Of a stretch of 29,642 nucleotides of DNA, positions 1,020-29,642 are shown one piece after another. The position numbers were made by a program, and so were the translations under genes. The DNA lies in IMG/VR virus record IMGVR_UViG_3300046170_000145, positions 1 through 29,642 of that record, one strand, 5' to 3'. Below the pieces are notes generated by a model. The model searched no databases. It saw only the letters and a program-made list of their open reading frames with translations, and had not been told where the DNA came from. Position 1 is the stretch's first letter. Every line of letters begins with the position of its first letter. The DNA is from a virus.

Positions 1020-1334
1020 ATGCAATGGCAAGTCTCAACAATGGAACGAACGCTAAACGACTCAGAAAGTGGTTTAGAGGGGGTGGTCAACATACTGCAC
1101 TGGCAATGTACGGACTCAGATGGTGAGCATCATGGCCGCTGCTACGGCACTGTGGGGCTAGAAGCACCAGATGCAGATGCCTTTACCGAATGGGGCGACA
1201 TAACTCACGATGATGCTGTAGAATGGGCAAAGGCTGCGTTAGGTGATCAGGTCGAGTCATGCGAGGCCAGCGTTGCTAACCAGATTGAGTTATCTAAGAA
1301 CCCAGTTCAAGCGAGTGGTACGCCGTGGAATTAG
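1020..1334 (+). CDS. Small DUF7936-like phage protein
   Basis: 104-aa protein with an ATG placed 8 bases after a strong AAGGAG that overlaps the tail fibre stop. Visible features are HWQCTDSDGEHHGRCYGT, an acidic middle (DADAFTEWGDITHDDAVEWAKAAL) and an ending NQIELSKNPVQASGTPW. This resembles, from memory, a family of roughly 100-aa phage proteins (DUF7936) usually encoded right after tail fibres and ending in KNPVxxxGxPW. Its role is not known; position suggests a fibre accessory or virion protein. There is no signal peptide or membrane segment. The end overlaps the next gene by 10 bases. Confidence 0.8.
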   Translation: MQWQVSTMERTLNDSESGLEGVVNILHWQCTDSDGEHHGRCYGTVGLEAPDADAFTEWGDITHDDAVEWAKAALGDQVESCEASVANQIELSKNPVQASGTPWN

Positions 1335-1486
1335 TCGAAATTATTGCTCTGTTACCTACTTTGTCGGTTTTGTGTTCTGCGATTTGCGCAGCAACCCCAA
1401 CCCCAAAAGATGATGCGATATATGCCAAGTATATTTATCCGGCTATTGAGTACATCGCTTTGAATTTTGGGAAAGCCAAAGAATGA
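1325..1486 (+). CDS. 53-aa hydrophobic protein
   Basis: A GTG start overlaps the previous gene, and the stop TGA overlaps the next ATG (ATGA at 1483-1486), which supports translational coupling. The protein has a short hydrophobic N-terminus (MELVEIIALLPTLSVLCSAICAA), then TPTPKDD and a second amphipathic helix around YPAIEYIALNFGKAK. Similar small proteins with a TPTPxDD turn occur in marine phages next to lysis-like membrane genes, from memory. One short membrane-associated helix is likely. Function is unknown; a holin-like or accessory role is possible but not shown. The ribosome binding site is weak, as expected for a coupled gene. Confidence 0.6.
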   Translation: MELVEIIALLPTLSVLCSAICAATPTPKDDAIYAKYIYPAIEYIALNFGKAKE

Positions 1487-1701
1487 CCAAAGAAGAGCGC
1501 AATCTGGCCTTAGATGCCCTCGAACGCATCGCAAAACACGAAGAAGTTTGTGGTCGGCGATGGGGTGAGGCATTGATTGAGTTAAAGCAACTGCGGTCGG
1601 CCACTGACGCTCACGCTGCGAGATGGGAAAAGCTCGCATGGTTGGTAATCACGACAGCACTAGCGACGGCTGCAACAGTAATAACATCGCACTTTTTCTG
1701 A
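1483..1701 (+). CDS. XhlA/holin-like coiled coil with C-terminal TM helix
   Basis: 72-aa protein. Residues 3-50 form a charged amphipathic helix (EERNLALDALERIAKHEE... IELKQLRSATDAHAARWEK). Residues 51-70 form one transmembrane helix, LAWLVITTALATAATVITSHFF, and the protein ends right after it, so it is tail-anchored. This plan matches XhlA-type hemolysin/holin-accessory proteins, though no specific motif proves the assignment. It overlaps the upstream hydrophobic gene by ATGA and sits 7 bases before another membrane coiled-coil gene, so the three may act together at the inner membrane. Alternatives are an antiholin or a generic membrane anchor. Confidence 0.72.
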   Translation: MTKEERNLALDALERIAKHEEVCGRRWGEALIELKQLRSATDAHAARWEKLAWLVITTALATAATVITSHFF

Positions 1702-1708
1702 GGTACAT

Positions 1709-2005
1709 ATGTCTGAAGCCATAAGAATCCCCACTTATCTGCTACCAATCGGCGCTGCTGTAGTCTCGTTTTTGATGGGCTATGCGGCCATGAGCGCCAA
1801 CGTAAGTCACGCAGATGAAGCCAGAGAACGTATTGAGGCGGTAGCGGAAGAAGCAATAAAAAAATCCCAGCAGAACGGCCAAGCGATAGCCGTAACGGAT
1901 CAGAAGGTTCAGGCCGTAATCGAATCGCTCAGTCGGCAGGAAAAGATCCAAGAGAAAACGAACGAGCAGATCCAAGCATTGGTGCAGGCACTTCTAGCCA
2001 AGTAG
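1709..2005 (+). CDS. N-terminal TM, coiled-coil protein (i-spanin-like plan)
   Basis: 98-aa protein with ATG behind TGAGG. Residues 9-31 (TYLLPIGAAVVSFLMGYAAMSAN) form one transmembrane helix. Residues 34-98 are a long polar helix with heptad character (EARERIEAVAEEAIKK... QAVIESLSRQEKIQEKTNEQIQALVQALL). A single N-terminal signal anchor with a periplasmic coiled coil is the plan of Rz-type inner-membrane spanins. No lipobox-bearing Rz1 partner was found in the alternative frames, so the spanin reading is only a possibility. It follows two other small membrane proteins, suggesting a membrane or lysis cluster at the end of the late operon. Confidence 0.7.
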   Translation: MSEAIRIPTYLLPIGAAVVSFLMGYAAMSANVSHADEARERIEAVAEEAIKKSQQNGQAIAVTDQKVQAVIESLSRQEKIQEKTNEQIQALVQALLAK

Positions 2006-6248: not shown

Positions 6249-6575
6249 ATGGCAAAGTATTACCGTCAAAGTGAGCGGTCAACGGCTGTCATGGAACTAG
6301 CAACGTACAACATTTATCCATTCGATAACGGTGATTGGAAGGCGCAAGTCGCCTTTGTTATGTTTCTGGCGATGGACGGCAAATCTACGGTCACGATTTG
6401 CTGCTGTGATGATAAAGGTCAGCAGTATGACGAACCTGACGGAATGCTGGTTATTGAAAGCATGAAGCCTTATGTGACCCCTGAAATTGTCGAAAAAAAA
6501 TTGACGGCGTTAATTGAATCCCTGAAAGGTAAATATCACTTTGTTCAAGTATGGATTGATCGGGAATGGAACTAA
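6249..6575 (+). CDS. Unknown 108-aa protein upstream of helicase
   Basis: 108-aa protein with AAGGG about nine bases before ATG. It shows alternating strands and turns (DNGDWKAQVAFVMFLAMDG, STVTICCCDDKGQQYDEPDGMLV) and a C-terminal helix EIVEKKLTALIESLKGKYHFV. The short cysteine cluster ICCCDD has no partner cysteines, so zinc binding is not supported. No family recognised. It overlaps the helicase start by 10 bases, which suggests coupled expression and a possible partner role in replication. Confidence 0.6.
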   Translation: MAKYYRQSERSTAVMELATYNIYPFDNGDWKAQVAFVMFLAMDGKSTVTICCCDDKGQQYDEPDGMLVIESMKPYVTPEIVEKKLTALIESLKGKYHFVQVWIDREWN

Positions 6576-8090
6576 GAGAATACCAACAACGGGCGGTTGA
6601 GCAGTCAATCGTAGAGCTAGCAAAACACGAAGCGATCATCCTACAAGCACCAACGGGATCGGGCAAAACGGTCATGGCTGCGGCCATCGCTGATCATTAT
6701 TTGACAAACGACCAGCGTGTTTTGTTCCTGCTGCCACGCCGTGAGTTAGTAGATCAGACCGCCGACAAGTTCGACGCGATTGGTTACGACTTCGGGAATG
6801 ATTACGGCATCATCATGGCTGGCGAGGATATGACCTATCACACGCTAGGCTGTCCGTTGCAGATCGCATCCAAAGACACACTTCACGCAAGAAGTAAAAG
6901 CGGCAAGATCCAACTGCCTGAAGCTGACCTGCTAATCATCGATGAGTGCCACCTATCACTCAGCCCGACTTGGTTAAAGCTTATTGATCACTACAAAGGT
7001 CTCGGCACTGACATCCTTGGGTCTGACGGCGACACCAGCGCGGGGAGATGGGCGCGGATTAGGGGAAGCCTACGACGTAATGATCCAAGCGCCGATGGTT
7101 TCTGAGTTGATGAATATGGGGCATCTGGCGAAAGCGACATATTACGCGCCGACGCAAGTAGACCTAGACGGGATAACCATTGATCGCAAAAAACACGACT
7201 ACAACGAAACCCAGTTGCAAGAGCGGATGTCGCAACAGCACATTGTCGGCGATATTGTTGAGCACTGGCTGAAGCTTGCCGGAGGTAGGCGAACAGTGGT
7301 TTTCTGCGCTGGAGTGAAGCACAGCATCTTAGTGCGAGATCGCTTTGTATCGCAGGGCGTGAAAGCTGAACACGTTGATGGCATGACTGAGATCGGCGAG
7401 CGCAAAGGCATCTTTGATCGGTTTAGGTCTGGCGAAACTCAAGTGCTGACAAACTGCATGGTTGCAACTTATGGCTTTGATTTACCAGAGATGGATTGCG
7501 TTGTATTAGCTAGACCAACCCAGTCGATCATTCTGCACCTTCAAATGCTAGGCCGGGGACTAAGAACCGCCAAAGGTAAAGAAGATTGTTTGGTGCTGGA
7601 TCATGCTGGTAATGTTGTCCGATTAGGCTTCGCCAGCGATGAAGTGCCGTGGGGATTAGAACCAACGGGGAATTTGTATGAACGAATCGCGCAGGAAAGA
7701 CTTGATAAGAAAATTAAAGACAGCGATGGAATTGTCTGCGATAGCTGCGGCCATATTTTTGAGAGTGCTAGACAATGCCCGAAATGCGATTGGGAGCTAC
7801 CTGAGAAAAAAGGCAAAGACATACAGGTTCGGGATGGTGAACTGGTTACCTATTCAGCGATGGATGGCCCAAGCGTTGACGATATTAGAAGGTTTTATCG
7901 TGAAATGCTGGGGCTTTGTGTGCTTAACAACCGAAAAACAGGTGTTGCGTATTTCACAACACTGGCGAAGTACGATTTCAAAGCGCCATATTCGTGGCTC
8001 AAATTACCACCGTTACAACCATCAGAAACAACGATCCGATTCGATAAGTATCAGCGGATCAGATACGCAAAAAGGCGGAGAAGGGCATGA
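6566..8090 (+). CDS. SF2 DEAH-type DNA helicase, frameshifted
   Basis: Two frames, 6566..7105 and the downstream frame ending at 8090, join into a 507-aa helicase if one G is dropped from GGG at 7019-7021. Joined motifs: ELREYQQRAV (N-terminal Q-like), Walker A APTGSGKT (28-35), DECH (126-129), LTATPARGDG (153-162), and motif VI QMLGRGLR (326-333). A zinc ribbon CDSC...CPKC follows (Cys 391, 394, 404, 407). This is a superfamily 2 helicase of the type phages use for replication or recombination. The break falls exactly between motifs II and III at LG|LTATP, in a G run, so it is almost certainly a sequencing error. It overlaps the next gene by ATGA. No primase is fused or adjacent. Confidence 0.93.
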
Positions 8091-10525: not shown

Positions 10526-10669
10526 ACCCTTAAAGTCAGGCCAGATGCCGTCACAGACGTTGGTGATGTAATCCGCTTCCTCTTGCAGTTCATCCTCGAA
10601 AGCCATCGTTGAGGCTTGCATCATTAGAATGACGGTTAAAGCAACCAGCAAGATGTATCGTATTTTCAC
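10484..10669 (-). CDS. Small exported protein (61 aa)
   Basis: GTG start overlaps the stop of the HTH gene (TAGTG). Residues 1-23 are a signal peptide: Lys-Ile-Arg at the N-terminus, a hydrophobic core (YILLVALTVILMM) and ASTMA as the probable signal peptidase I site. The mature part is ~38 acidic residues, FEDELQEEADYITNVCDGIWPDFKGL... with two Cys (CDGIWPDF and CPDRF) that could pair in the periplasm. Function unknown. Together with the HTH gene it forms a two-gene leftward unit opposite to everything around it, which is moron-like. It may act on the envelope during infection; inference only. Confidence 0.6.
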   Translation of the reverse strand: MKIRYILLVALTVILMMQASTMAFEDELQEEADYITNVCDGIWPDFKGLRPTCPDRFAYQP

Positions 10670-10899
10670 TAGTTTGACTCCGAGCGTAGAAAGCGGCGAA
10701 CCGCGTTGTAGATTGTGCTTTGGGCTAAACCCATCTCACGCGAGATATCGGCCTTTGTATAGCCTTGCTGGTATAGCTCACCGATGCGGTCAATTTGTGC
10801 CTCGGTCAGCTTTTTAGGTGCTGGCCTATTGCTAGAAAGCCCGTACATATCGGGCAGCTTTTTAAGCGCCTGAGTAGCGCGATAGAATGTGTCGTTCAT
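10669..10899 (-). CDS. HTH DNA-binding protein (resolvase/Hin-type HTH)
   Basis: 76 aa. The N-terminal part MNDTFYRATQALKKLPDMYGL is polar. PAPKKLTEAQIDRIGELYQQGYTKADISREMGLAQSTIYNAVRRFL (positions ~27-72) is a helix-turn-helix of the Hin/resolvase/sigma-region-4 type, with recognition helix QSTIYNAVRRF. It lacks any catalytic domain. It is transcribed away from the divergent region that holds candidate operator O3 and from the lysis genes on the other side, so it may regulate late transcription or itself. ATG start with GAGAATCAA upstream. The exported-protein gene follows in the same transcript. Confidence 0.75.
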   Translation of the reverse strand: MNDTFYRATQALKKLPDMYGLSSNRPAPKKLTEAQIDRIGELYQQGYTKADISREMGLAQSTIYNAVRRFLRSESN

Positions 10900-11014: not shown

Positions 11015-11425
11015 ATGAAGACTGTAAAACTAGAACGGCTGGCGTATTTAGAAGATGGGACATTCGGCGAACTGACATCGGATTGCGGGTTTCACTGCTA
11101 CACCGTAGAGCGGCCTTGGTTAGACAACAAGCCGTGGAAGTCATGCGTACCCGAAGCGAGCTATGAGTGTCAGCCATTCGACGGCAACAGATTTAAGGGC
11201 GTCGTAGAGTTAACCAACGTGCCTGATCGCAGCCATATACTGATCCACCCCGCAAACTGGCCGAAAGAGCTACACGGCTGCATTGGGCTAGGTAACGGCT
11301 GGGAGATTACAAAAACGGTGCCGATGGTTTACAATTCCAAGGCGACCTGTAGAGAATTCTTTGCAAAGGTTGGCAAAGAGTTTATTTTGACCATAACGAG
11401 CAAGAGCGCGATTTTATGGGAATAG
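11015..11425 (+). CDS. DUF5675 family protein, possible peptidoglycan enzyme
   Basis: 136 aa; TGAGGTG lies before ATG 11015. The family pattern is clear: GTFGEL, FHCYTVERPWLDNK, SCVPEASYEC, NVPDRSHILIHPANW and HGCIGLG. This is the DUF5675 domain, common next to holins in phages. IHP...LHGCIGLG resembles the His...HGC signature of YkuD-type L,D-transpeptidases and related Cys enzymes, so cell wall cleavage is plausible; activity is not established to my knowledge. It overlaps the holin gene by 10 bases, supporting a lysis role. No other endolysin was found in the window, so this is the best lysin candidate. Confidence 0.82.
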   Translation: MKTVKLERLAYLEDGTFGELTSDCGFHCYTVERPWLDNKPWKSCVPEASYECQPFDGNRFKGVVELTNVPDRSHILIHPANWPKELHGCIGLGNGWEITKTVPMVYNSKATCREFFAKVGKEFILTITSKSAILWE

Positions 11426-11799
11426 GCATAGTCAAAGAGCTAGTCGGCCCTGTAGCGGGCATCCTAGACAAGTTTGTCGAGGATAAAGACCAGCGGGCGC
11501 AGTTAGCGCATGAAATCGCAACGATGGCCGACAATCACGCGCAGGAATTAAGCCTAGCGCAGATCGAGCTAGCCAAAGTTGAGGCTGGCGGTAACTGGCT
11601 ACAACGAAGTTGGCGACCTATGATCGGCCATATTTGTTGGATTGGGTTGGCCTACAACGTAGTGGTCAGCCCATTCCTGGGCATTTGGTTGCCTGTTCCT
11701 GAGATACAATCGGATCTACTGTATCCGGTTCTATTGGGAATGCTTGGAATGTCAGGCATTCGCGGATATGAGAAAGTGAAGGGCAAGGCTGGTGGCTAA
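11416..11799 (+). CDS. Holin (3-TM superfamily)
   Basis: 127 aa. The N-terminal half is amphipathic (GPVAGILDKFVEDKDQRAQLAHEIATMADNHAQEL). NWLQRSWRPMIGHICWIGLAYNVVVSPFLGIWLPVP (residues ~60-95) and a second hydrophobic segment LLYPVLLGMLGMSGIRGYEKVKG make the membrane part. RSWRPM and GMSGIRGYEK are hallmark motifs of the Holin_3TMs superfamily. Holins assemble in the inner membrane and open at a set time to let the lysin out. It overlaps the DUF5675-like gene upstream and is followed by the coiled-coil membrane gene (8-base overlap). Confidence 0.9.
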   Translation: MGIGIVKELVGPVAGILDKFVEDKDQRAQLAHEIATMADNHAQELSLAQIELAKVEAGGNWLQRSWRPMIGHICWIGLAYNVVVSPFLGIWLPVPEIQSDLLYPVLLGMLGMSGIRGYEKVKGKAGG

Positions 11800-12082
11800 G
11801 GTTTCCGAAGATTCAGAACTGACGATCCCGCTGAAAAACTTGCTTAGTTTGGTTGGAGCAACGGCTGTAGGTGTTTGGGCATACTTTGGTATCACTGAAC
11901 GCCTTGGCTTGTTAGAGCGCGAACAAGCTATGATGATGATCGAGGTTGAAGAAAACGATAACTGGATTGACAACTTCACGCCCCCGCCCGAAGTGAACGC
12001 CAGCGTTCAACGGGTCAGGGAGCTAGAGTTGCAGCTTGTTGAGATAAAGTCGCGGCTTAAATTCTTGGAGGCGGAGAAGTAA
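11792..12082 (+). CDS. One-TM coiled-coil protein, lysis cluster
   Basis: 96 aa from GTG 11792 overlapping the holin stop. Residues ~17-33 (LLSLVGATAVGVWAYFGI) form one transmembrane helix. The rest is polar and helical (LLEREQAMMMIEVEEN... and VQRVRELELQLVEIKSRLKFLEAEK), with a C-terminal coiled coil. This resembles phage lysis-accessory or spanin-like proteins; no lipoprotein partner is seen. The ending EAEK abuts the next ATG behind GGAGGCGGAG. Confidence 0.7.
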   Translation: MAKVSEDSELTIPLKNLLSLVGATAVGVWAYFGITERLGLLEREQAMMMIEVEENDNWIDNFTPPPEVNASVQRVRELELQLVEIKSRLKFLEAEK

Positions 12083-16423: not shown

Positions 16424-17101
16424 ATGAGCGAAGAAGTCATGGATGAAGCTGTCGAGACTGAGACGACCGAAACTACTCAGGAAAGCAAGACGTTTACGCA
16501 AGAAGAGTTAGACCGCATTGTTGCTGATCGCATAGCGCGAGAACGCAGGAAAGCTGATAAGAAACTCGAAGGTATCGACTTAGATGAAGCCCGTAAAATC
16601 ATGCAAGAGCGTGAACAGGCTGAAATAGAACGCCAAAAGGAACGCGGCGAATTCGAGTCAATACTGAAGCAAACCGTCGAGAAAAAAGATCAAGAGATCA
16701 CGGCATATAAGCAGAAGTTGCAACAAACATTGGTCGATGGATCACTGTTAAGCGCAGCAAGTAAGCATGAAGCGGTATCCCCTGATCAGGTGTCGCAGTT
16801 ACTGAAGAACCGAGTTCGACTAGCCGATGACGGTGGAGTTGAAGTTCTCGATGATTCTGGAACCCCGCGATACAACGGAAGCGGCGACCTACTATCTGTT
16901 GATGAGTTGGTTTCTGATTTCCTAACGGCTAATCCGCATTTTGTTCGTGCCTCCGGTGGAGGGGCGGGCAGTCAGGGTAACGCTGGTGGCTCTACTCCGA
17001 AGCCTGTATCGGTGGCTGATATGGTAGAAAACTGGAACGACGGCGGGCGAGAAGCCTATGCTGCCATGAAGAAGGCGAATGACCAAATTAACCACTTTTG
17101 A
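16424..17101 (+). CDS. Scaffolding protein
   Basis: 225 aa preceded by AGAGGATAA. Acidic N-terminus (EEVMDEAVETETTET), helical coiled coil from ~25-110 (RIARERRKADKKLEGIDLDEARKIMQEREQAEIERQKERGEFES...), then a flexible Gly-rich linker (ASGGGAGSQGNAGGST) and a basic-acidic C-terminus. This is the standard plan of a capsid scaffold, encoded right before the major capsid protein; the C-terminus usually binds the coat. It should be removed from proheads before DNA packaging. No protease gene is visible nearby. 16-base gap to the capsid ATG. Confidence 0.88.
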   Translation: MSEEVMDEAVETETTETTQESKTFTQEELDRIVADRIARERRKADKKLEGIDLDEARKIMQEREQAEIERQKERGEFESILKQTVEKKDQEITAYKQKLQQTLVDGSLLSAASKHEAVSPDQVSQLLKNRVRLADDGGVEVLDDSGTPRYNGSGDLLSVDELVSDFLTANPHFVRASGGGAGSQGNAGGSTPKPVSVADMVENWNDGGREAYAAMKKANDQINHF

Positions 17102-17117
17102 GTTTTGGAGAACTACA

Positions 17118-17950
17118 ATGGCTGCTACAACTAGCACAACCCTTGACGATCTATTCGTCAACATTATCGCTCAGGCACGATTCACCGCTGAAGAAGCAAT
17201 CCTTAATGATGGGTTTGGTTACTCGTACGACATCGGCGCTGAAGCCGGCAAGACGATTCAGGTGCCTAAGTACCCTGCAATCGCTGCTGCTGATTTAACC
17301 GAAGGCACTGACATGTCCATCACGACTGTTAGCACTCGCTCTGTAACATCACGGTTGGTGAAGTTGGCGCACAGGTTGTATTGACCGACGTTGCTGCAAT
17401 GGGTGCTGGTAATCCTGCTGAAGAGTTGGGTACTGTTCTGGGTAACTCAATCGCTACCAAGATGGATAAAGACCTGATCGCTTTGTTCGACGGCTTCTGC
17501 AGTTCTTTGGGTGCCGCTGCACAAGAGATCACTGTTGCTGATCTGTTTAAGGCTGCTGCAACTCTACGCTCTAACAAAGTGACCGGCCCAATGTACGCCG
17601 TTGTTCACCCTTTCCAAGCGTATCAGTTGAAAGCTAACCTAACCAACACGTTCGCAAACCCTAATGGTGGTGATGCTCAAAACACCGCTATGGTAAATGC
17701 TTATGTCGGCACAATTGCTGGCATCGACGTTTACGAGTCTGCAAACGTAACTGTTGACGGTAACGACGACGCTAAAGGCGCGGTATTCGCACCTGAAGCA
17801 CTCGCTATCGCCATGAAGCGTGACTTCCAAATCGAGCCACAGCGTGACGCATCACTGCGAGCGTTTGAGCTTAACGCTACTGCCGTATACGGTGTTGGCG
17901 AATTGGATGACACCTTCGGCGTTGAGATGTTGTTCGACTCAGCACTGTAA
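17118..17950 (+). CDS. Major capsid protein, frameshifted
   Basis: ATG 17118 sits behind TTGGAG. Frame 17118..17384 ends early at ...SVTSRLVKLAHRLY, and the rest runs from ~17360 to 17950. Restoring one A near 17351 (TCA-CGG to TCA-ACG-G) gives SVTSTVGEVGAQVVLTDVAAMGAG with no break, ~277 aa. N-terminus MAATTSTTLDDLFVNIIAQARFTAEEAIL; C-terminus ends VYGVGELDDTFGVEMLF. Size, high Ala content and position between scaffold and a strong terminator fit the major coat protein; the HK97-like fold is inferred. An intact capsid gene must exist for a viable phage, which supports a sequencing error here. Confidence 0.88.
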
Positions 17951-20344: not shown

Positions 20345-20484
20345 TGTCCGATCCGTCGAGGATGAATCTTATATCCTTGGCAGATCGGTTACATAAGACA
20401 ATCGGAGAAGTTGAGCAGATACCCGTTAGTGAATTCAACGAGTGGCTGGCCTACTTCAAGATCATAGGCAAGGACAATGGCTAA
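20344..20484 (+). CDS. Tail assembly chaperone T part (made by frameshift)
   Basis: 46-codon ORF overlapping the G stop (TGATG). MSDPSRMNLISLADRLHKTI followed by EQIPVSEFNEWLAYFKIIG is the small helical T-like domain that binds the tape measure in lambda-type systems. It is normally made as the G-T fusion through the -1 slip at 20335; use of its own ATG is possible but no ribosome binding site is seen. It ends 8 bases into the tape measure gene. Confidence 0.8.
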   Translation: MSDPSRMNLISLADRLHKTIGEVEQIPVSEFNEWLAYFKIIGKDNG

Positions 20485-22109
20485 CCAAGACGTTCGCATT
20501 TCGATCAAGGCGGTTGATAAAACCAAGGCTGGTTTCTCATCCGTTACGAGAGGATTGAAAAGTGTAGCCGGGGCTATCTTCAGCATGAAAAGTGCCATCG
20601 TTGGCGCTGTAGGTGTTGGGGGTATCGGCCTTCTGGTTCAAAGATCCTTTGCAAGCTACCGACGCGCTATCTAAGACGGCGATCAGGTTAAACACTACGA
20701 CCGAAGCCCTAAGCAAGCTGCACTTCGCGGCAGAGCTAAGCGGCGTTTCCACCGAAACCATGAACATGGCGATGCAGCGGTTCACTAGAAGAACTGCCGA
20801 GGCTGCGCGTGGTACAGGTGAAGCCCGTGGCGCGTTGCGTGAACTGAACCTAAACGCTGCTGATCTTGCAAAGCTTCCACTAGAAGAACAGATGATCAAG
20901 CTGGCTCAGGCATTCGACGAGAATGTTCCGGCAGTTGACCGTACACGAGTAGCCATGAAGCTATTTGACTCGGAGGGTGTAGCGTTATTGCAGACGCTAG
21001 ATTCTGGTGCTGACGGCTTGCGCGACATGTTCAAAGAAGCCGAAATGCTTGGCCTAGTTATGAGTGATGATGCTGCGCGTGGTGTGGCTCAAGCGAATGA
21101 CGCAATAAGCAGGATGCGGATGACTACCGGCGCGCTGGTAGATCAGTTTGTTGCAGCTTTAGCCCCAGCAATTGAGAGCGGGGTTACAGCGTTCCAAGAG
21201 TATGTCGCGCAATTAGTTAAGACCGAAGGCGGGTTCAAGAATCTAGCCAAAGTGGTTGCGATCAATCTGCTGACGGCGTTTAGGGATGCCTTGCAAGGGG
21301 CTGAAGATTTTGTAAACGGACTCATCGGCGCTATCAACGATTTCAACAAGTTTATTTCAGAAATGATGCCGGCGCTGGAAAGATTCAGGAAGCAAATAGA
21401 AGAAGTCGATATAAGCGGTACGATTAGCGCAATTGATAGCATGATTGGCGTTGTCGGCAAGTTGGGCGAATCAGCCTCATCAACCGGCACCACGTTAACA
21501 GAAGCATTCAACCCTTCGACTATGGAGATTTTTCGGGATGCGGCGGTTGATGCCTTCGACAATATCAGCGAATCAATAGAAAACACTGGCCAGAAAACGC
21601 TAAAGATTACGGCGCAACTAGAAAAGCTGGCAACCAATACAATGAACAACCTGACCGATAGTTTGTTCGATGCGGCGGCTGGTACGGCGAATCTGGCTGT
21701 AGCATTCCGAAAGATGGCAGCAAGTATCGTTGAAGATTTAACCAAGATGCTAATTCGCTATTTAATCGTTGAGCCATTGTTTGCCTCACTTACTGGCGGG
21801 GCATCTACCGCATTAGGCGGTGCCGCTAAGGTTTCTGAGTCAGTTCCCGGAAGGGCTATAGGTGGATCGGTACAAGCTGGAAGCCCTTACATGGTTGGCG
21901 AGCGTGGCCCTGAGATGTTTATACCTAATTCATCGGGGTCGATTGTTCCTAACGATAAGATGGGCGGCGGTATCACTGTTGTGAATAACATTGATGCCAA
22001 GGGCGCTGGCCCTGAAGTCGATATGAAGATCCGGGCAGCTATGCAGCAGACATCGCAGCAGACTATTCTATCCATTCAAGATTTGATGCGTAGAAGGCGC
22101 TTTGTATGA
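20477..22109 (+). CDS. Tape measure protein, frameshifted
   Basis: The 20477..20674 frame and the frame ending 22109 join to ~543 aa if one T is dropped from TTT at 20648-20650, giving LLVQRSLQATDALSKTAIRLNTT. A hydrophobic segment (residues ~38-58, AGAIFSMKSAIVGAVGVGGIG) lies near the start. The body is long helices (ALSKLHFAAELSGVSTE, RFTRRTAEAARGTGEARG). The C-terminus ends with PGRAIGGSVQAGSPYMVGERGPEMFIP, a typical tape-measure end. Lambda-like scaling of about 0.15 nm per residue would give a tail near 80 nm. It is short for a tape measure. The break is homopolymeric, so sequencing error is likely. Confidence 0.88.
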
Positions 22110-22705
22110 CAACTTTTACATTCCCGTCGATAACGCCATCAGCTAGCACGTTTGAGCTAGTTAGCAACACTCGAACCTATCGGTCGCCGCTGACTAACGC
22201 GGTTCAGACTGTAGGTCGCAAGGGTTCGTTATGGCGCGCAGCGTTACAGTTCAACAACCTGACCGGCGCAGACCGCGCTGAGATGCAAGCATTCGTTACG
22301 AAGCTTAACGGCCAAGAGCATAGGTTTACGTTGCATGATCACTCATACACCCTTCGAGGCGCAGGTGGCGGCACGTTAAGAGTAAACGGCGCAAGTCAGT
22401 CTGGATCTAGCTTGGTCTGTGATGGCGCGACTGCCAGTGTTACGAATTACCTTAGAGCAGGGGACTACGTTTCGTTTAGTAATGAACTGCATATGGTTAC
22501 GGCTGACGCTAATTCTGACGGCTCAGGAAATCTGACGCTGTCACTAGCACCGCCTATTAGAAAACAACCTGCCGACGATACAATTATCGACTACACCGCT
22601 CCGGTCAATGGGGTGTTCATGCTCGCCAGCCCAGCATCTTGGAATAACCAACCTGGCATCTTTTCTAGCTTCACCATTGAGGCAATCGAGGATGTTCTAG
22701 CGTGA
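22106..22705 (+). CDS. Distal tail protein-like
   Basis: 199 aa. Beta-rich: TYRSPLTNAVQTVGRKGSLWRAALQFNNLTGADRAEMQAFV then HRFTLHDHSYTLRGAGGG and an ending PGIFSSFTIEAIEDVLA. This pattern is common in marine phages right after the tape measure and behaves like a distal tail/baseplate protein (Dit-like); fold assignment is inferred. It overlaps the tape measure stop (ATGA at 22106) and the next GTG (GTGA), so the genes are co-translated. Forms the ring between tube and tip protein. Confidence 0.7.
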   Translation: MTTFTFPSITPSASTFELVSNTRTYRSPLTNAVQTVGRKGSLWRAALQFNNLTGADRAEMQAFVTKLNGQEHRFTLHDHSYTLRGAGGGTLRVNGASQSGSSLVCDGATASVTNYLRAGDYVSFSNELHMVTADANSDGSGNLTLSLAPPIRKQPADDTIIDYTAPVNGVFMLASPASWNNQPGIFSSFTIEAIEDVLA

Positions 22706-23332
22706 GCAGAGACTTTCCAACAAACGTATCCAATGCGCTGGTTGCTAATCACGTTGCCACGGTTACGTTCATCAAGCTGGAGTTCTCATCAGGTACTTTA
22801 TACCTGCACAACTCAATCGGAACCTACACTTGGGGCGGGCAAGACTGGCTAGGGGTAGGCGATCTGGGTGACATATCCGCCTATTGAAGAAGGCGCAGAA
22901 GTCAGCCCGTACAAGATCACGCTAAGCCTGTCTGCTATCGACGCGACGATCAGTAACGCAGCACTGAACGAAGACTACTACATGCGTCCGGTTACTTTGT
23001 ATATCGGGGCATTGGATAGCGCAGACGATCTACTAGCTGATCCCACAGAAGTGTGGGCTGGCTTCATGGATCAGATGAACGTATCGCTAGGGCATCAGGG
23101 CAGCGATGATATTGCCTTGATCGCTGAAAGCGAGTTGGCGAAGTTCGACCGCGCATCTAATCGACGATTCACCGACGCGCATCAGCAAGAAACTCATTCG
23201 GGTGATCTGTTCTTCGGGTTCTTGAAAGACATTGAAGGCGCGAAGATACAGTGGGGCAGTTCTGGCTCTACTACTGGCGGCACCCCTGATCTTGATACGA
23301 TGCCAAGCAGACCTAGATTTGAAACGCGCTGA
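22702..23332 (+). CDS. DUF2163-like baseplate hub protein, frameshifted
   Basis: Starting at GTG 22702, SRDFPTNVSNALVANHVATVTFIKLEF ... TWGGQDWLGVGDLGDISA breaks at CC 22880-22881; dropping a C reads ISAIEEGAEVSPYKITLSLSAID and runs to 23332, ~209 aa. YKITLSLSAIDATISNAAL and VWAGFMDQMN match the DUF2163-type tail tip (hub) proteins found between distal tail proteins and NlpC-like proteins. It links the distal ring and the J-like tip. Homopolymer break, likely an error. It overlaps the next ATG (TGATG). Confidence 0.75.
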
Positions 23333-23700
23333 TGAAGGTTCTGGCCGCGCTCAATAAGTGGCAACGGCGTGAATTCAATTATGGCGACGCTGATTGCTGC
23401 CAATTTGCGGCTTTTATCGTTAAAGAACTGACTGGGCAGGATTACGCTGCCGATTTCCAATATAATACCGAGCAGGAAGCCGACAACATCATCAGTGGTT
23501 GCGGCGACCTGAAGAATTTGATCGTTGCGATTTTGGGCAACCCTTCAGATGAGTTAAAAGATGGCGACCCTTGTTTGATTGATATGCCTATTGTTGGGCA
23601 GATCATGGGCATCAAATTAGGCTCACAAGTCGTTGCTCTAACGCAGAAGGGTTTGATTAGGGTGCAAGATCGTTATTTAGTTTGCGGCTGGAGCGTGTAG
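23332..23700 (+). CDS. NlpC/P60-like fold (DUF6950-like) lacking any His
   Basis: 122 aa. EFNYGDADCCQFAAFIVKELTGQDYAADF is the start of the NlpC/P60-like fold seen in phage tail proteins such as DUF6950, with the usual YGxxDCxxF Cys (C22). Lambda gpK-type relatives help assemble the tip or open the cell wall. However, there is not a single His in the protein, so a normal Cys-His catalytic pair is not possible; it is likely a structural or degenerate version. Position next to the J-like gene matches the gpK/I position. The ATG overlaps the previous stop. Confidence 0.75.
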   Translation: MKVLAALNKWQRREFNYGDADCCQFAAFIVKELTGQDYAADFQYNTEQEADNIISGCGDLKNLIVAILGNPSDELKDGDPCLIDMPIVGQIMGIKLGSQVVALTQKGLIRVQDRYLVCGWSV

Positions 23701-23703
23701 AAA

Positions 23704-26700
23704 ATGCCACAAGTAGTCCCTGCGCTGATTGTAAAAATCGGAGTCGCTTTAGAGATGATCGGCACCGCCGTGACTTTAGGTGCGGCCACTGGTGTTACAG
23801 CAATCGTCGCGGGAACCGCTGCTGTTATTGGTGGCGCGAGATTAGTTACCGCTAATGCAATGCCTGATCTCACGACAGCGATTGGTGATAACGCATCGAA
23901 TCGGCAAGCCACCGTCAGAAGCACCACAGAACCGCAAAAGCTAATCTATGGCCAAGCTTTAGTATCCGGCCCGATAACCTTTGTGGGTGTAGCGGGTACT
24001 GATAACCGCGACCTATACCATCAGATCGCGCTGGCTGGGCATGAAATACATAGCATCACCGACATCTATTTTGATGACCAAGTGATAACAAACGCATCTA
24101 TCGGCGGCGGGGCTGCAACAGGCGGCAACGTAACAACCGGCGACTTCGGCCCATTAGCCAGCACAACAATTTGTAAGATAAACAAGCACTTAGGAACATC
24201 GACCCAAGCCGCAGACTCGGATCTTGTTTCTGCGTTTACTGAGTACACCAGTTCGCATCAAGGTAAGGGCGTTGCTAATATCGTGACCAAGTGGACGCTG
24301 ACCGATGAGTCGCAGTCTGTTTGGGACAAGAAAAAGCCCAACAATATAAAAGCCCTAGTTAAAGGCAAAAAAGACATCTACGACCCGCGCCTTGATACAT
24401 CTGCGGGTGCTAATCCTACTGATTCGAGTTATCAGGCATGGACTGACAACCCTGCGCTGTGCATAGCTGATTACTTGATGAGTTCGACCTTCGGGTTAGG
24501 TATCGCTGCGGCAAAGATTGATTGGGATGCGGTAGTCACTGCGGCGAATGCTTGTGATGTAAGTGTATCAATCCCCGGCTCGACTACTGAAAAACGTTTC
24601 ACGTGTAACGGTGTAATTTTTGGCACCGATCAACATCGTCAAAATATCGACAAGATACTTAGCGCGATGAACGGCAACCTGACCTACACATCAGGCAAAT
24701 ACACCATCAGAGCGGGCGTATACGCGGCTCCTAGCGAGTCTTTAGACGAGGATGACCTAGCGGGTGCGGTAATCGTAAAAACGTCTGTAGAGCGTTCACA
24801 GCGGTTTAACAAGATCACAGGGATGTACATATCACCGGCTGATAATCACAAGTCGGTCGAGTTCCCTGCGGTACAACTGACTGCGGCACTGCAAAGAGAT
24901 AACAACGAGACACTAGAGCGCAACATCAGCTTGCCGATGACTAATACCAGCTATATGGCGCAGCGTATTGCGAACGAGTTGGTGCAGTTAAGTGACCAGC
25001 AGAAGGTCATCACGTTCCCATGCAATTTGTCTGGGTTGCGTGTAGCTGTGGGTGATCGTGTAAGCATTACCCTTAGCGATTTGGGATATTCCAACAAAGT
25101 ATTCCGTTGCGTCGGCTGGTCATTCTCGGAGTCAAACGCAAGCGGCGTTAACCTGACTTTGATCGAAGATGATTCTGGAAGCTATGCCGATCCTGATGTT
25201 TCTGCATACTCAACAATCAGCGCAACTGGTGTAATCACGGCAGGGTTTCCGGGCGTACCAGATCCAAGCAACTTAACCGCGACTGCTGGCCTTAAAAACA
25301 TTGAGTTGAACTGGACGAATCCAACCGAGACTAGCTTATTCACTGAGATTGTGATTTATGCGTCACCGGATTCTAGTTGGTCGAACAAGGTTGAGATTGG
25401 TCGCACTAGAGGCACCCAGTTTATACACGATGCGTCGAATGCTGCCGATGCTATTAGTCCGGGTGACACTAGATTCTATTGGATTCGCGCATTAGCCTAC
25501 GGCGCCGGTAGTGGCGCGGGCGTGGAGTCGGACAGACAGCCCGACAATGATACCAGCACGATTAGTGCCACGGCTGGGGCCAATGACCCCAATTATACGG
25601 ATGTCGTTAACAACGTCCCCGCGCAAGAAGCACCGTCGGGTCTAACACTGACTGAAACCACTGTATTAGGTAACGATGGTTCGGTTTTGCCAGCGATTCG
25701 GGTGTCATGGACTGCGCCCACCGCAAACACTTATGTCAGCCACTACGACGTTGAATTCAAGAGAACGTCACAAGGCGAGATCGACTACGGGCAAGTCACC
25801 GACTCATACACGGCCACCATCGACTACGGTTCTGTTGCTACGGCTACGACCGTTGAATTGAACTATGGCGGCGTTAACGAGGCCATCAGTGGAGCGGGTA
25901 CAGCATTCTCATCGGTCAACGTCCACGGCGTTTCGACTGTCATTTCGGGGATGCAAGAGCTAGAAGAATTCACCGTTCGAGTGAAAGCGGTCACGGTTGT
26001 AGGTACAACGTCAGGAACCATAACCGGCACGATCACCTTGCAGGGCGATCAGACTGCGCCGGGTATACCGGGATCAATTACCGCCACTGGCGGCATTCAG
26101 CAAATCAAGCTGAACTGGGACAACCCAAGCGATTCAGATTTAGCTTATGTCGAGATCTACGAAAACGACACCGACAACCGCGCCACATCTTCGCTGATTG
26201 TTCAGACCAGAGCAGACCAGCATACGGTTTCGGGCTTAGGTAACGCAGTCACTAAATACTACTGGCTGAGAAGCGCAGACCGATCCGGTAACGTTTCTGG
26301 GTTCAGCGCGTCTGTAAACGCGACCACGCAAAAGGTCGCAATGAATGACTTGGCGCAAGACGTTCTCGATGAATTTGCTGCTGGTGATGCGTTTGGTATA
26401 GAGCCGGTGGGTACTTTGTCCGGCGTTACAGGTTCGCACGTTGGTCAGATTAAGTTCTTAACCACAACCAACACCTTATACGTTTGGACGGGTTCGGCGT
26501 GGTCAACTGATCTGTTCACGGCATCGGAAGTAGACCCCGGTTCGATTACTGCGGCATCTTTTGCTAGTGGTGTCGAGCCAATCTCAGCGGTTACTAGCTT
26601 GCCGTCACCTTCGGGATACACTGGCCCGAATATCGTATTTCTGACCACTGACAAAAAACTGTACAGGTACGACAGCTCGGTTCCTGAGTTTACTACTCTG

Positions 26701-28319
26701 ATCAACGCCAGTGATTTGACTGGCACGTTTGATAGCGACCAGTTCCCTAACAGTCTGCGACCCGTTGAGGTTTTGGGGGCGTTACCAACTACTGGCAACA
26801 CTCAAGGCCGGACGGTACTTCTTACAACTGACAACAAGCTGTACAGGTACACGGGGAACATCATTCACCACGGCCATATCTGCGGCTGATCTCAGCGACC
26901 AGCTAAACGTCGCCACGCAGGTGGTCGGTGAATTGCCTGTATCGAATGCGAATGCAGGTCTGAGAAATAGTGGTATCACTATCAACGCAGACGGGTCACT
27001 GAGCGGGGCCGGTGCAGGTAATGTAACCCTTTCTGGTATAGGGGCTGGCGCACTAGCAGCGCAGAATACGGTAAACCTAGCAACTCAAGTTGCCGGTGAA
27101 CTGTCAGCAGCTTACGCAGCGGCAGGTCTGAAGAATTCCAACGTCACGATCAACGCGGATGGTACGTTAGGCGGCGCTGGTGCTGGGCAGGTTTCTCTAA
27201 GCGGTATCGGAGCGGGTGCGCTTGCATCGCTCAACAGCATCACCGCAACCGAGATAACCGACGGGTCAATCACCACACCTAAGATCGCAGCGGGTCAGAT
27301 TACAGCGGCCAAATTGAACGCCTCAGAGGTCTTTGCTGACTCGGTAGTAGCGTCCAACATCGCAGCCAATTCGGTCACAGCGGCCAATATCAAGTCTGTG
27401 CTGGTGTCTACTGACAAACTGGTCGCGGATCAGATTGCAGCAAATACAATTACTGCTGACCTTATCGCAAGCCGGACTATTTTGGCCGGTAACATCGTTG
27501 CTGACACTTTGACCGGCAATGAGATTTTGGCGAATTCGGTAAATGCTGACCGCCTAGTTGCGAACAGTATCACCGCCGGAAAGATTGCAGCCGGAACCAT
27601 AACCGCAACTGAGATATCAACTGGCACGTTGACCGCAAACAAACTCAACGTTTCTGAGATTTTCGGAGATTCGGCGGTAATTGGTGCGATTCAAGCATCA
27701 TCCATCACAACGGCGGCGGTTGTTGCTGCTATTGGTACGTTTGAATTCATCCAGTCGGATAACATCCAGTCGAATGCGATAACAGCGGGCAAGCTGGCTG
27801 CGTCTGATGTTGTAACGTCAAGCGCACAAATATCTGACGGCATCATCACTAACGCCAAAATCGGCAACACGATACAATCGTCAAACTACTCAGCGGGTTC
27901 TGCTGGCTGGATTATTAACAAGAATGGCGATGCTGAATTCAACGGCGTTGTCCTAAGTCGGAACCTAATTGTTGCGAGCGGTACTTATTACCCAAGCGAC
28001 CAAACAACTACATTCTCTGGCGACATAGATACGCTGGCGACGTTCTTTGTTGAAGGGCGTTTACTCGGCTGGCTTTACCGCGTGGGGCGGATCAAACTCC
28101 ACGCTACTTTGTAACGTCGAGATGGGCGGCAGCTTCTACACCAACGTTGGCTATCAAACCACTTCGATGCTGGGGCCAGTCGCTACCATTTTACCTTTGA
28201 CCAAGTTCCAAGGTACGCAAGGCTTTACTCTAAAAATTGAGATGGTCGGCAGACACGTTGCGGGCTGGGGTTCGCCTAGCGACCTAACGTTAAGCTGGAA
28301 AATCTACAAGGTAACGTAA
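23704..28319 (+). CDS. J-like tail tip / host-specificity protein, two frameshifts
   Basis: Frames 23704..26889, the middle frame to 28114 and the last frame to 28319 join to ~1537 aa if one G is dropped from GGGG (26853-26856) and one from GGG (28055-28057). First join: KLYRYTGTSFTTAISAADL; second: FFVEGVYSAGFTAWGG. Residues ~60-510 form the J-like tip core (KLIYGQALVSGPITFVGV, NPALCIADYLMSS). Residues ~519-875 contain three fibronectin-III-like domains. The last third holds two 56-aa repeats and a helical ITxxKIAAxxIT-type repeat region. The protein sits at the tail tip and reads the host receptor. Both breaks are in G runs. 36 bases after DUF6950-like stop, with weak spacing. Confidence 0.9.
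26906..27241 (+). repeat. Two tandem 168-nt coding repeats in the J-like gene
   Basis: Units 26906-27073 and 27074-27241 each encode 56 aa: NVATQVVGELPVSNANAGLRN... and NLATQVAGELSAAYAAAGLKN..., both ending SGIGAGALAxxN(T/S)(V/I). They share INADGxLxGAGAG and are exactly equal length. They are likely a duplicated shaft domain that could expand or shrink by recombination. Confidence 0.85.
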
Positions 28320-28475: not shown

Positions 28476-29642
28476 ATGGCAACACAACTACAAATCAGAA
28501 GAGGCACCAGCACTCAGGTTGCCGCATTTACCGGGGCTGAAGGTGAAATCGTTGTAAACACCACCAACGATTCGGTACACGTTAACGATGGTTCAACTGC
28601 TGGCGGCTTTGAGTTGGCCCGCGCCGACTTCAATAACATTTCGGCCAGTGCGACCCTAACCATCGGGACGCTGAATACCACGAACCTTGACTTAACAAAT
28701 CTTGAAGTCACGAACATAAAAGCCAAAGATGGCACCGCTGCGGGGTCGATTGCTGACTCAACCGGCGTAGTGACTTTAATTAGCTCATCACTGACAACTG
28801 CTGACATCACCACGCTGAAGATTGGCGGCACCACAGTAACCAGCACCGCCGCTGAGTTAAACATCTTAGACGGCGTTACCTCTACCGCTGCCGAGCTAAA
28901 CATCCTAGACGGTGTGACGGCTACCACTGCTGAACTTAACTATGTGGACGGCGTAACTTCTGCCATACAGACCCAGATAGACGCTAAGGCACCTATTGCT
29001 AATCCAACGTTCACCGGCAGCGTGACTACTGATGTTAGCGAAGGATCAGCGAACTCGTTAAACACTCAGATTTCGATGAAACATCAAAGCGGCAGCACTG
29101 GCTATCATTTGAAGACCATACGATCTGCATCAAGCGATGAGCCAGATGGTTTAGCTTTTGTAGAAAACACAAGTGAGCGTATGAGAATCCGTGGCGGTAA
29201 CGTGGGCATCGGCACCTCTACAACTACGGGTAATAGCGGTCACTCAAATATATTTTTGGGCGGCACTGCGAACATCTATGCTGATTCAGCGGCAACTGCT
29301 GATGCTTCATTAAGCATTAGTCAAAATGCCTTTGTGGATTCTGATGGCTCATGGGAATACAGAGTTACAGACGAAGCTACCAACTATTATCAAAACGCTG
29401 GTAATCATGTCTGGCGTAACGCCGCATCGGGAACTGCTGGTACTGACATTTCTTGGCAGGAGGCCATGCGCATCAGCAGCGGCGGCGACCTTATCCTTGC
29501 TGCCAATGCCACCGGTGCGGCATTAATCAAAGGCGTATCAGGAGACCAAACAGATAGAAATACGGGAGGTTATCCGCAATACACTTTTGTTGGTAATGAA
29601 GGCACAGGCATAAGACGAGCGTCAGCAAATGTTTTAGCGTTT
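28476..29642 (+). CDS. Tail fibre, N-terminal part (runs off window edge)
   Basis: 389 codons, open to the right edge and joining 1..1008 in phase. MATQLQIRRGTSTQVAAFTGAEGEIVVNT is the usual start of tail fibre proteins that attach to the tip (QIRRGT motif). It is followed by triple SxTAAELNxLDGV repeats (28839-28955), then APIANPTFTGS and receptor-distal RxxSxGxLxxG type repeats (ERMRIRGGNVGIGTST, EAMRISSGGDLIL). With the C-terminal part it makes a 724-aa S74 fibre. GAGATGG start directly follows the previous gene. Confidence 0.9.
   Translation, partial: MATQLQIRRGTSTQVAAFTGAEGEIVVNTTNDSVHVNDGSTAGGFELARADFNNISASATLTIGTLNTTNLDLTNLEVTNIKAKDGTAAGSIADSTGVVTLISSSLTTADITTLKIGGTTVTSTAAELNILDGVTSTAAELNILDGVTATTAELNYVDGVTSAIQTQIDAKAPIANPTFTGSVTTDVSEGSANSLNTQISMKHQSGSTGYHLKTIRSASSDEPDGLAFVENTSERMRIRGGNVGIGTSTTTGNSGHSNIFLGGTANIYADSAATADASLSISQNAFVDSDGSWEYRVTDEATNYYQNAGNHVWRNAASGTAGTDISWQEAMRISSGGDLILAANATGAALIKGVSGDQTDRNTGGYPQYTFVGNEGTGIRRASANVLAF
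28839..28955 (+). repeat. Three tandem 39-nt repeats in the tail fibre
   Basis: Units at 28839, 28878 and 28917 encode TSTAAELNILDGV, TSTAAELNILDGV and TATTAELNYVDGV. This 13-residue repeat is very common in marine phage fibres and probably gives a trimeric shaft. The third copy has diverged, indicating older duplication. Confidence 0.9.

What the first reader, a model, noticed from the sequence alone, without database searches (positions are those of the whole stretch)
11015..11425. DUF5675-like protein may be the only lysin
No standard endolysin was found in the window. This gene is coupled to the holin and holds IHP...LHGCIGLG, which resembles the His/HGC active site of YkuD-type wall enzymes. 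It is a good candidate for the lysis enzyme itself.
Basis: partly seen in the sequence, partly recalled or inferred. Interest (0 to 1): 0.6.

Follow-up and report, generated by a model that had tools for sequence, protein, structure and literature searches.

The report
Unusual YkuD-fold phage lysis enzyme
A small marine-phage gene of unknown function has the fold of a bacterial wall-peptide enzyme and, in related phages, sits exactly where known cell-bursting enzymes sit, so it is very probably the enzyme this phage uses to break its host open.

Summary
The gene at 11015-11425 is real. It is under strong purifying selection, overlaps a 3TM-holin gene by 10 nt, and belongs to DUF5675 (PF18925, phrog_1501; function unknown). 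AlphaFold2 (pLDDT 96) gives a YkuD / L,D-transpeptidase fold: the 21 best solved structures are all L,D-transpeptidases or L,D-carboxypeptidases (Z 5.8-10.2); the next match is Z 2.5. Across 106 diverse homologues H78, N81, G88 and C89 never vary. No recognised lysin was found in the genome, which appears complete. The strongest evidence is displacement. Vibrio phages martha 12B12 (DUF5675) and 1.028.O (GH108 muramidase) differ at this slot while downstream genes are 90-100% identical. In P2/HP1-like Vibrio prophages DUF5675 and other slot genes (GH24, M15, pesticin-type, phrog_3108) are mutually exclusive, 26:42 without overlap. Relatives of the window's own holin are paired with M15 peptidases. 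DUF5675 is most likely a holin-dependent endolysin, probably an L,D-endopeptidase. Activity was not tested. Database annotators already named crAss-phage homologues "L,D-carboxypeptidase/transpeptidase", so the fold idea is not new; the endolysin role appears to be.

The parts
11015..11425 (+). DUF5675 (PF18925 / phrog_1501) protein, 136 aa; YkuD-fold putative endolysin
   Evidence: AlphaFold2 pLDDT 96.1; fold match to L,D-transpeptidases/L,D-carboxypeptidases Z up to 10.2
11246..11248 (+). codon of H78, predicted catalytic His, invariant in 106 homologues
11279..11281 (+). codon of C89, predicted catalytic Cys, invariant in 106 homologues
11416..11799 (+). 3TM holin (PF11351 GTA_holin_3TM, phrog_3427), overlapping the DUF5675 gene by 10 nt
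   Evidence: all 22 homologues of this holin found in 112 DUF5675 loci lie 1-3 genes from DUF5675
11792..12082 (+). small protein with an N-terminal membrane segment and a charged/coiled C-terminal part; possible i-spanin-like lysis partner (inference only)
   Evidence: sequence; phrog_20984 unknown function; not found in the cassette of some close relatives, e.g. L360, L361, L363
23332..23700 (+). DUF6950 protein before the tail-tip gene: considered and rejected as the lysin (contains no histidine at all)
28476..29642 (+). N-terminal part of the tail fibre, reading in frame into window position 1 (evidence that the genome is complete)
   Evidence: contiguous order in relative L278
1..1008 (+). 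C-terminal part of the same tail fibre (Peptidase_S74 chaperone domain)

Best explanation
The 11015-11425 protein is the phage's endolysin. It has no hydrophobic signal segment, accumulates in the cytoplasm and reaches the periplasm when the adjoining 3TM holin opens the inner membrane. There a Cys89-His78 pair on a YkuD fold attacks peptidoglycan stem peptides. Shown here: the gene and its coupling to the holin, the predicted fold, the invariant His and Cys, the absence of another recognised lysin, and the replacement of known endolysins by this family at the same locus in relatives. Inferred: hydrolysis, most likely at the mDap3-D-Ala4 L,D bond of cross-linked stems (L,D-endopeptidase, which would sever 4-3 cross-links). 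The Arg that follows the catalytic Cys in canonical transpeptidases is missing in all 106 homologues; loss of a conserved active-site Arg is also reported for the hydrolase DpaA.
For: Family and coupling to the holin. Fold: AlphaFold2 pLDDT 96.1, pTM 0.89; 21 L,D-transpeptidase/L,D-carboxypeptidase entries at Z 5.8-10.2, best Pgp2 and Csd6, then a drop to 2.5. Profile-profile match to a YkuD clade, prob 81%, E 1.2e-5, aligning PEG-Y, I-H and GCIA motifs. 29 of 106 members weakly hit Tlde1_dom and 4 hit YkuD. Invariant H78/N81/G88/C89. Displacement: (i) Mu-like martha 12B12 DUF5675 versus 1.028.O GH108, with Mor and the downstream genes 90-100% identical and the holin-like gene 99.5%; a Shewanella Mu-like phage has an annotated lysozyme there; (ii) 68 P2/HP1-like prophages: DUF5675 26, other slot genes 42 (GH24 16, phrog_3108 24, M15 1, pesticin-type 1), overlap 0; (iii) the window's own holin (84% identical in L364) overlaps an M15_3 endolysin gene (phrog_894) instead, and no record holds both M15_3 and DUF5675. 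All 22 3TM-holin-like genes among 2275 ORFs in 112 homologue loci lie 1-3 genes downstream.
Against: No activity data were found for any member. Foldseek alone found no significant PDB match. The protein does not reach the Pfam YkuD cut-off and lacks the canonical HX14-17(S/T)HGC motif (His-Cys spacing 11-12). Two of the three displacement cases come from relatives at 30-40% identity, not from the window's own group. The prophage counts are not phylogenetically independent, and 24 of the 42 slot genes (phrog_3108) are themselves unproven lysins. Salinibacter phage M8CRM-1 carries both DUF5675 and an annotated 'cell wall hydrolase', so the two can co-occur. Some known YkuD enzymes build cross-links rather than cut them.
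Confidence: 0.86

Rival explanations
1. DUF5675 is an accessory wall enzyme (for example detaching outer-membrane lipoproteins like DpaA, or trimming stems like Csd6), and the true lysin is an unrecognised ORF of the genome.
For: The closest folds are the cell-shape enzymes Pgp2 and Csd6. Lysins can escape family models, as phrog_3108 probably does. Several window ORFs have no family. Salinibacter phage M8CRM-1 has DUF5675 plus an annotated cell wall hydrolase.
Against: An accessory gene would coexist with endolysins, yet in the P2/HP1-like set it never did (0 of 26), nor with M15_3 in the 40 holin records, and it takes the place of a GH108 muramidase in a nearly unchanged Mu-like locus.
Confidence: 0.09
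2. It is a cross-linking L,D-transpeptidase that remodels or protects the wall during infection rather than breaking it.
For: The fold family contains many cross-linking enzymes; public records name crAss-phage homologues 'transpeptidase'.
Against: It occupies endolysin slots next to holins. All 106 members lack the Arg after the catalytic Cys; the L,D-transpeptidase review reports loss of a conserved active-site Arg in the hydrolase DpaA (PMC12729407).
Confidence: 0.03
3. It is a virion-associated entry enzyme.
For: DUF5675-like domains occur inside giant phage proteins, such as a 1251-aa protein of Ralstonia phage RP31.
Against: In the window it lies next to the holin and outside the tail genes. 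The Cellulophaga phi39:1 homologue gp30 is not among the proteins annotated from virion mass spectrometry. In Mu-like phages it lies in the lysis slot, away from tail genes.
Confidence: 0.02

Closest known systems
YkuD-family enzymes Csd6 and Pgp2 (L,D-carboxypeptidases) and L,D-transpeptidases (PF03734)
   Same: Overall fold (Z 9.2-10.2 for Csd6/Pgp2); invariant Cys and His; PEG-Y, IH and GCI motifs in the same order
   Different: Short 11-12 residue His-to-Cys spacing, no (S/T)HGC, no Arg after the Cys; below the Pfam YkuD cut-off; holin-coupled phage gene without a hydrophobic signal segment
Tlde1 domain (PF10908), antibacterial T6SS L,D-carboxypeptidase/transpeptidase
   Same: Related fold (Tlde1a Z 8.1-8.3); weak profile matches in 29 of 106 members; compact wall-attacking YkuD-type enzyme
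   Different: Delivered by T6SS and paired with immunity proteins; canonical HX14-17(S/T)HGC motif (PMC9638812)
Phage endolysins: M15 peptidases, GH24 and GH108 muramidases, pesticin-type lysozyme
   Same: Same genomic slot, related holins, mutually exclusive with DUF5675 in the sets tested
   Different: Different protein families and chemistry
YkuD-domain phage lytic proteins in the PhaLP database and endolysin surveys
   Same: YkuD has been listed as a rare catalytic domain of phage lytic proteins (10 in PhaLP)
   Different: Those are canonical PF03734/PF10908/cd16913 matches; DUF5675 stays 'unknown function' in Pfam and PHROGs

Membership tests
DUF5675 (PF18925) | Score over the curated cut-off | tested here: met
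   95.7 bits against 26.7
YkuD / L,D-transpeptidase | Score over the PF03734 cut-off | tested here: not met
   No match even at E 10; 4 of 106 relatives match weakly, best E 0.019
YkuD / L,D-transpeptidase | YkuD fold | tested here: met
   21 of the 22 rows of the second look are this family, Z 5.8-10.2; the other row is Z 2.5. Foldseek alone was not significant
YkuD / L,D-transpeptidase | Canonical motif HX14-17(S/T)HGC followed by hydrophobic-Arg | tested here: not met
   His-Cys spacing 11-12 in 105 of 106, position before GC variable, no Arg at C+2 in any
YkuD / L,D-transpeptidase | Invariant Cys and His in the active site | tested here: met
   H78 and C89 106/106; paired with the YkuD His and Cys motifs by hhalign. 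Spatial geometry was not measured
YkuD / L,D-transpeptidase | L,D-bond chemistry on peptidoglycan | not testable with these tools
   Needs enzyme assays
Tlde1_dom (PF10908) | Score over the curated cut-off | tested here: not met
   Window protein has no hit; 29 relatives match weakly, best E 0.0018, and those whose scores were shown lie below the cut-off
Phage endolysin (functional class) | Encoded in a lysis cassette with a holin | tested here: met
   Overlaps PF11351 holin; recurrent in relatives
Phage endolysin (functional class) | Interchangeable with known endolysins in relatives | tested here: met
   GH108, GH24, M15 and pesticin-type swaps
Phage endolysin (functional class) | No competing recognised lysin in the genome | tested here: met
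   the 9 lowest-ranked Pfam families were not displayed
Phage endolysin (functional class) | Degrades peptidoglycan and is needed for lysis | not testable with these tools
   Needs zymogram, muropeptide analysis and a deletion
NlpC/P60-type peptidase (rival gene 23332-23700, DUF6950) | Catalytic Cys-His pair | tested here: not met
   The 122-aa protein contains no histidine

The most novel reading that the evidence does not exclude
DUF5675 is a new catalytic class of phage endolysin: a single-domain YkuD-fold cysteine peptidase that severs cross-links at L,D bonds. It would be the sole lysin of many phages of marine and gut bacteria (tailed phages, crAss-like phages, a microvirus) and would interchange with muramidases and M15 peptidases next to 3TM holins.
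Probability: 0.6. Interest if true: 0.7.

Novelty: new variant of a known kind. Interest (0 to 1): 0.62.

Why it matters
At least 136 phage records in the annotated collection match this protein and hundreds of IMG/VR contigs encode relatives (576 in one capped search), without an assigned function in Pfam or PHROGs. Calling them lysins would fill the missing lysis gene of many Vibrio, Cellulophaga and crAss-like phages. It would also show that a fold known mainly for building or trimming the wall has been turned into a phage lysis enzyme, with a bond specificity that differs from muramidases, amidases and M15 peptidases. Annotators could adopt it at once and a simple lysis assay would test it.

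Tried and rejected
DUF6950 (23332-23700) as the lysin: rejected, no histidine. Possible M15 in the window: only chance-level tblastn matches. Small membrane genes at 1325-2005 as an alternative lysis cassette: no wall-hydrolase domain; not excluded as accessory holins or spanins. PDB sequence search with the family profile: only chance hits. Foldseek against PDB: nothing significant. First attempts to scan with the broad alignment failed. Profile comparison with a mixed YkuD alignment was weak (prob 29%); with one coherent clade it rose to 81%. A first exclusivity table showed 8 false overlaps caused by an over-long lysB ORF; with the trimmed query they vanished. Literature: two papers mention DUF5675, neither with a function; no paper holds PF18925; no DUF5675 lysin was found in the held library. 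Promoter/terminator scan of the cassette: near chance.

Full report
What is there. The ORF 11015-11425 (+) encodes 136 aa, has a GAGG ribosome-binding site and ends 10 nt inside the next gene, 11416-11799. The protein is DUF5675, PF18925, E 2e-27, and phrog_1501 'unknown function'; the next gene is a 3TM holin, PF11351/phrog_3427. Ten close relatives in IMG/VR keep the gene at 90-99% amino-acid identity with dN/dS 0.02-0.09, so it is a functional protein.

Is it the only lysin? The record is a 29,642-base virus contig classed as linear. The last ORF reads in frame, without a stop, into the first ORF across the contig ends, giving one 724-aa tail fibre. A relative, L278, has fibre start, fibre junction, then the window's genes 1020, 1325, 1483 and 1709 in that order. 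The window is therefore probably a complete, circularly permuted genome, although no exact terminal repeat was found. A Pfam scan of 56 ORFs (25 of 34 families shown) and of ten unassigned ORFs gave no lysin, and targeted searches for YkuD, M15_3, phage lysozyme, SLT and amidase_2 were negative. The one other wall-enzyme candidate, the DUF6950 gene before the tail tip, contains no histidine and cannot be a Cys-His peptidase.

Fold and active site. An alignment of 106 diverse homologues keeps R8, E32, N38, S43, Y50, R72, H78, N81, G88 and C89 invariant. Foldseek against PDB is not significant, but the second-look aligner finds 21 L,D-transpeptidase/L,D-carboxypeptidase entries at Z 5.8-10.2, led by Pgp2 (10.2) and Csd6 (9.2), and then drops to an unrelated ribosomal entry at 2.5. 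Sequence evidence agrees: 29 of 106 members weakly match Tlde1_dom and 4 match YkuD, and hhalign with one YkuD clade gives probability 81%, E 1.2e-5, pairing the PEG-Y motif, the His motif and the Cys motif. All members lack an Arg two residues after the Cys. Loss of a conserved active-site Arg is also reported for the hydrolase DpaA (PMC12729407), which favours hydrolysis over cross-linking; this is inference.

Displacement of known endolysins. In the window's own phage group, the holin is 84% identical in L364, where the same small genes (g1709, g2041, g2796) precede it and an M15_3 peptidase (phrog_894 endolysin) overlaps its end; M15_3 or M15_4-like genes are near the holin in other relatives. 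Over 40 records, nearly all with this holin, 9 have DUF5675, 10 have M15_3 and none has both; many are fragments. In P2/HP1-like Vibrio prophages the slot between tail tube and tape measure holds DUF5675 in 26 and another gene in 42 (GH24 lysozyme 16, phrog_3108 24, M15 1, pesticin-type lysozyme 1), with no overlap (Fisher p 2e-19, not corrected for relatedness). In Mu-like phages, martha 12B12 has DUF5675 where phage 1.028.O has a GH108 muramidase; Mor is 98% identical and the genes downstream are 90-100% identical, including the holin-like gene at 99.5%; the gene between Mor and the lysin slot also differs. A Shewanella Mu-like phage has an annotated lysozyme in the same place, and Mu has its endolysin in the corresponding region.

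Holin association. In 112 non-redundant homologue loci with 2275 ORFs, an iterated profile of the window's holin finds 22 genes, all at +1 (15), +2 (5) or +3 (2) from DUF5675, one of them on the opposite strand. A small membrane protein follows DUF5675 in 44% of loci against a 16% background. DUF5675 also occurs in a 4.9-kb microvirus and in crAss-like phages, where depositors wrote 'transpeptidase'.

Mechanism. The best reading is a holin-released endolysin. A YkuD enzyme cuts the L,D bond mDap3-D-Ala4 (established knowledge of the family); in a cross-linked stem that cut severs the 4-3 bridge. L,D-endopeptidase activity is documented for another YkuD enzyme, LdtCd2 (PMC12729407). Whether DUF5675 is an endopeptidase, a carboxypeptidase or both is unknown.

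Limits. No assay was found; two of the three displacement cases come from relatives at 30-40% identity; the prophage counts are correlated; phrog_3108 is unproven; one phage carries DUF5675 together with an annotated cell wall hydrolase. Prior knowledge: crAss-phage homologues already bear L,D-carboxypeptidase/transpeptidase names in databases, and YkuD is a rare listed domain of phage lytic proteins, but no paper in the held library was found to assign a function to DUF5675. I rate it a new variant of a known kind.

Noticed in passing
L408:3196-3702:- and 23 other P2/HP1-like Vibrio prophages: phrog_3108 ('unknown function', sequence ..AHESG..GFTQMEPATF..) occupies the lysin slot of 24 prophages and is mutually exclusive with GH24, M15, pesticin-type lysozyme and DUF5675: probably another unrecognised endolysin family.
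   Followed up: partly
L195, L204, L215, L219, L222, L224, L233, L242, L249, L251 and others, around 6-9 kb of each locus: Bacteroidota genomes carry a conserved mini-cassette: a ~250-aa protein (MARQKGIIKLKGTIGDITFYKTKDGHLAREKGG..), DUF5675, a ~77-aa 2-TM protein and often a ~57-aa 1-TM protein. Its role is unknown; it could be a phage remnant or a lysis or release module.
   Followed up: no
window 6566-8090, 17079-17950, 20477-22109, 22702-23332, 23704-28114: Helicase, capsid, tape measure and two tail genes are each split over two overlapping frames, suggesting assembly frameshifts in this contig.
   Followed up: no
window 10669-10899: The resolvase-type HTH gene upstream of the lysin differs between otherwise close phages (63% versus 95% identity), suggesting local recombination next to the lysis cassette.
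   Followed up: no
window 1325-2005: Three small genes, at least two with a membrane segment, follow the fibre; in relatives lacking DUF5675 the 3TM holin and often an M15 lysin lie close to this block, so the holin seems to have moved next to the terminase in the window's clade.
   Followed up: partly
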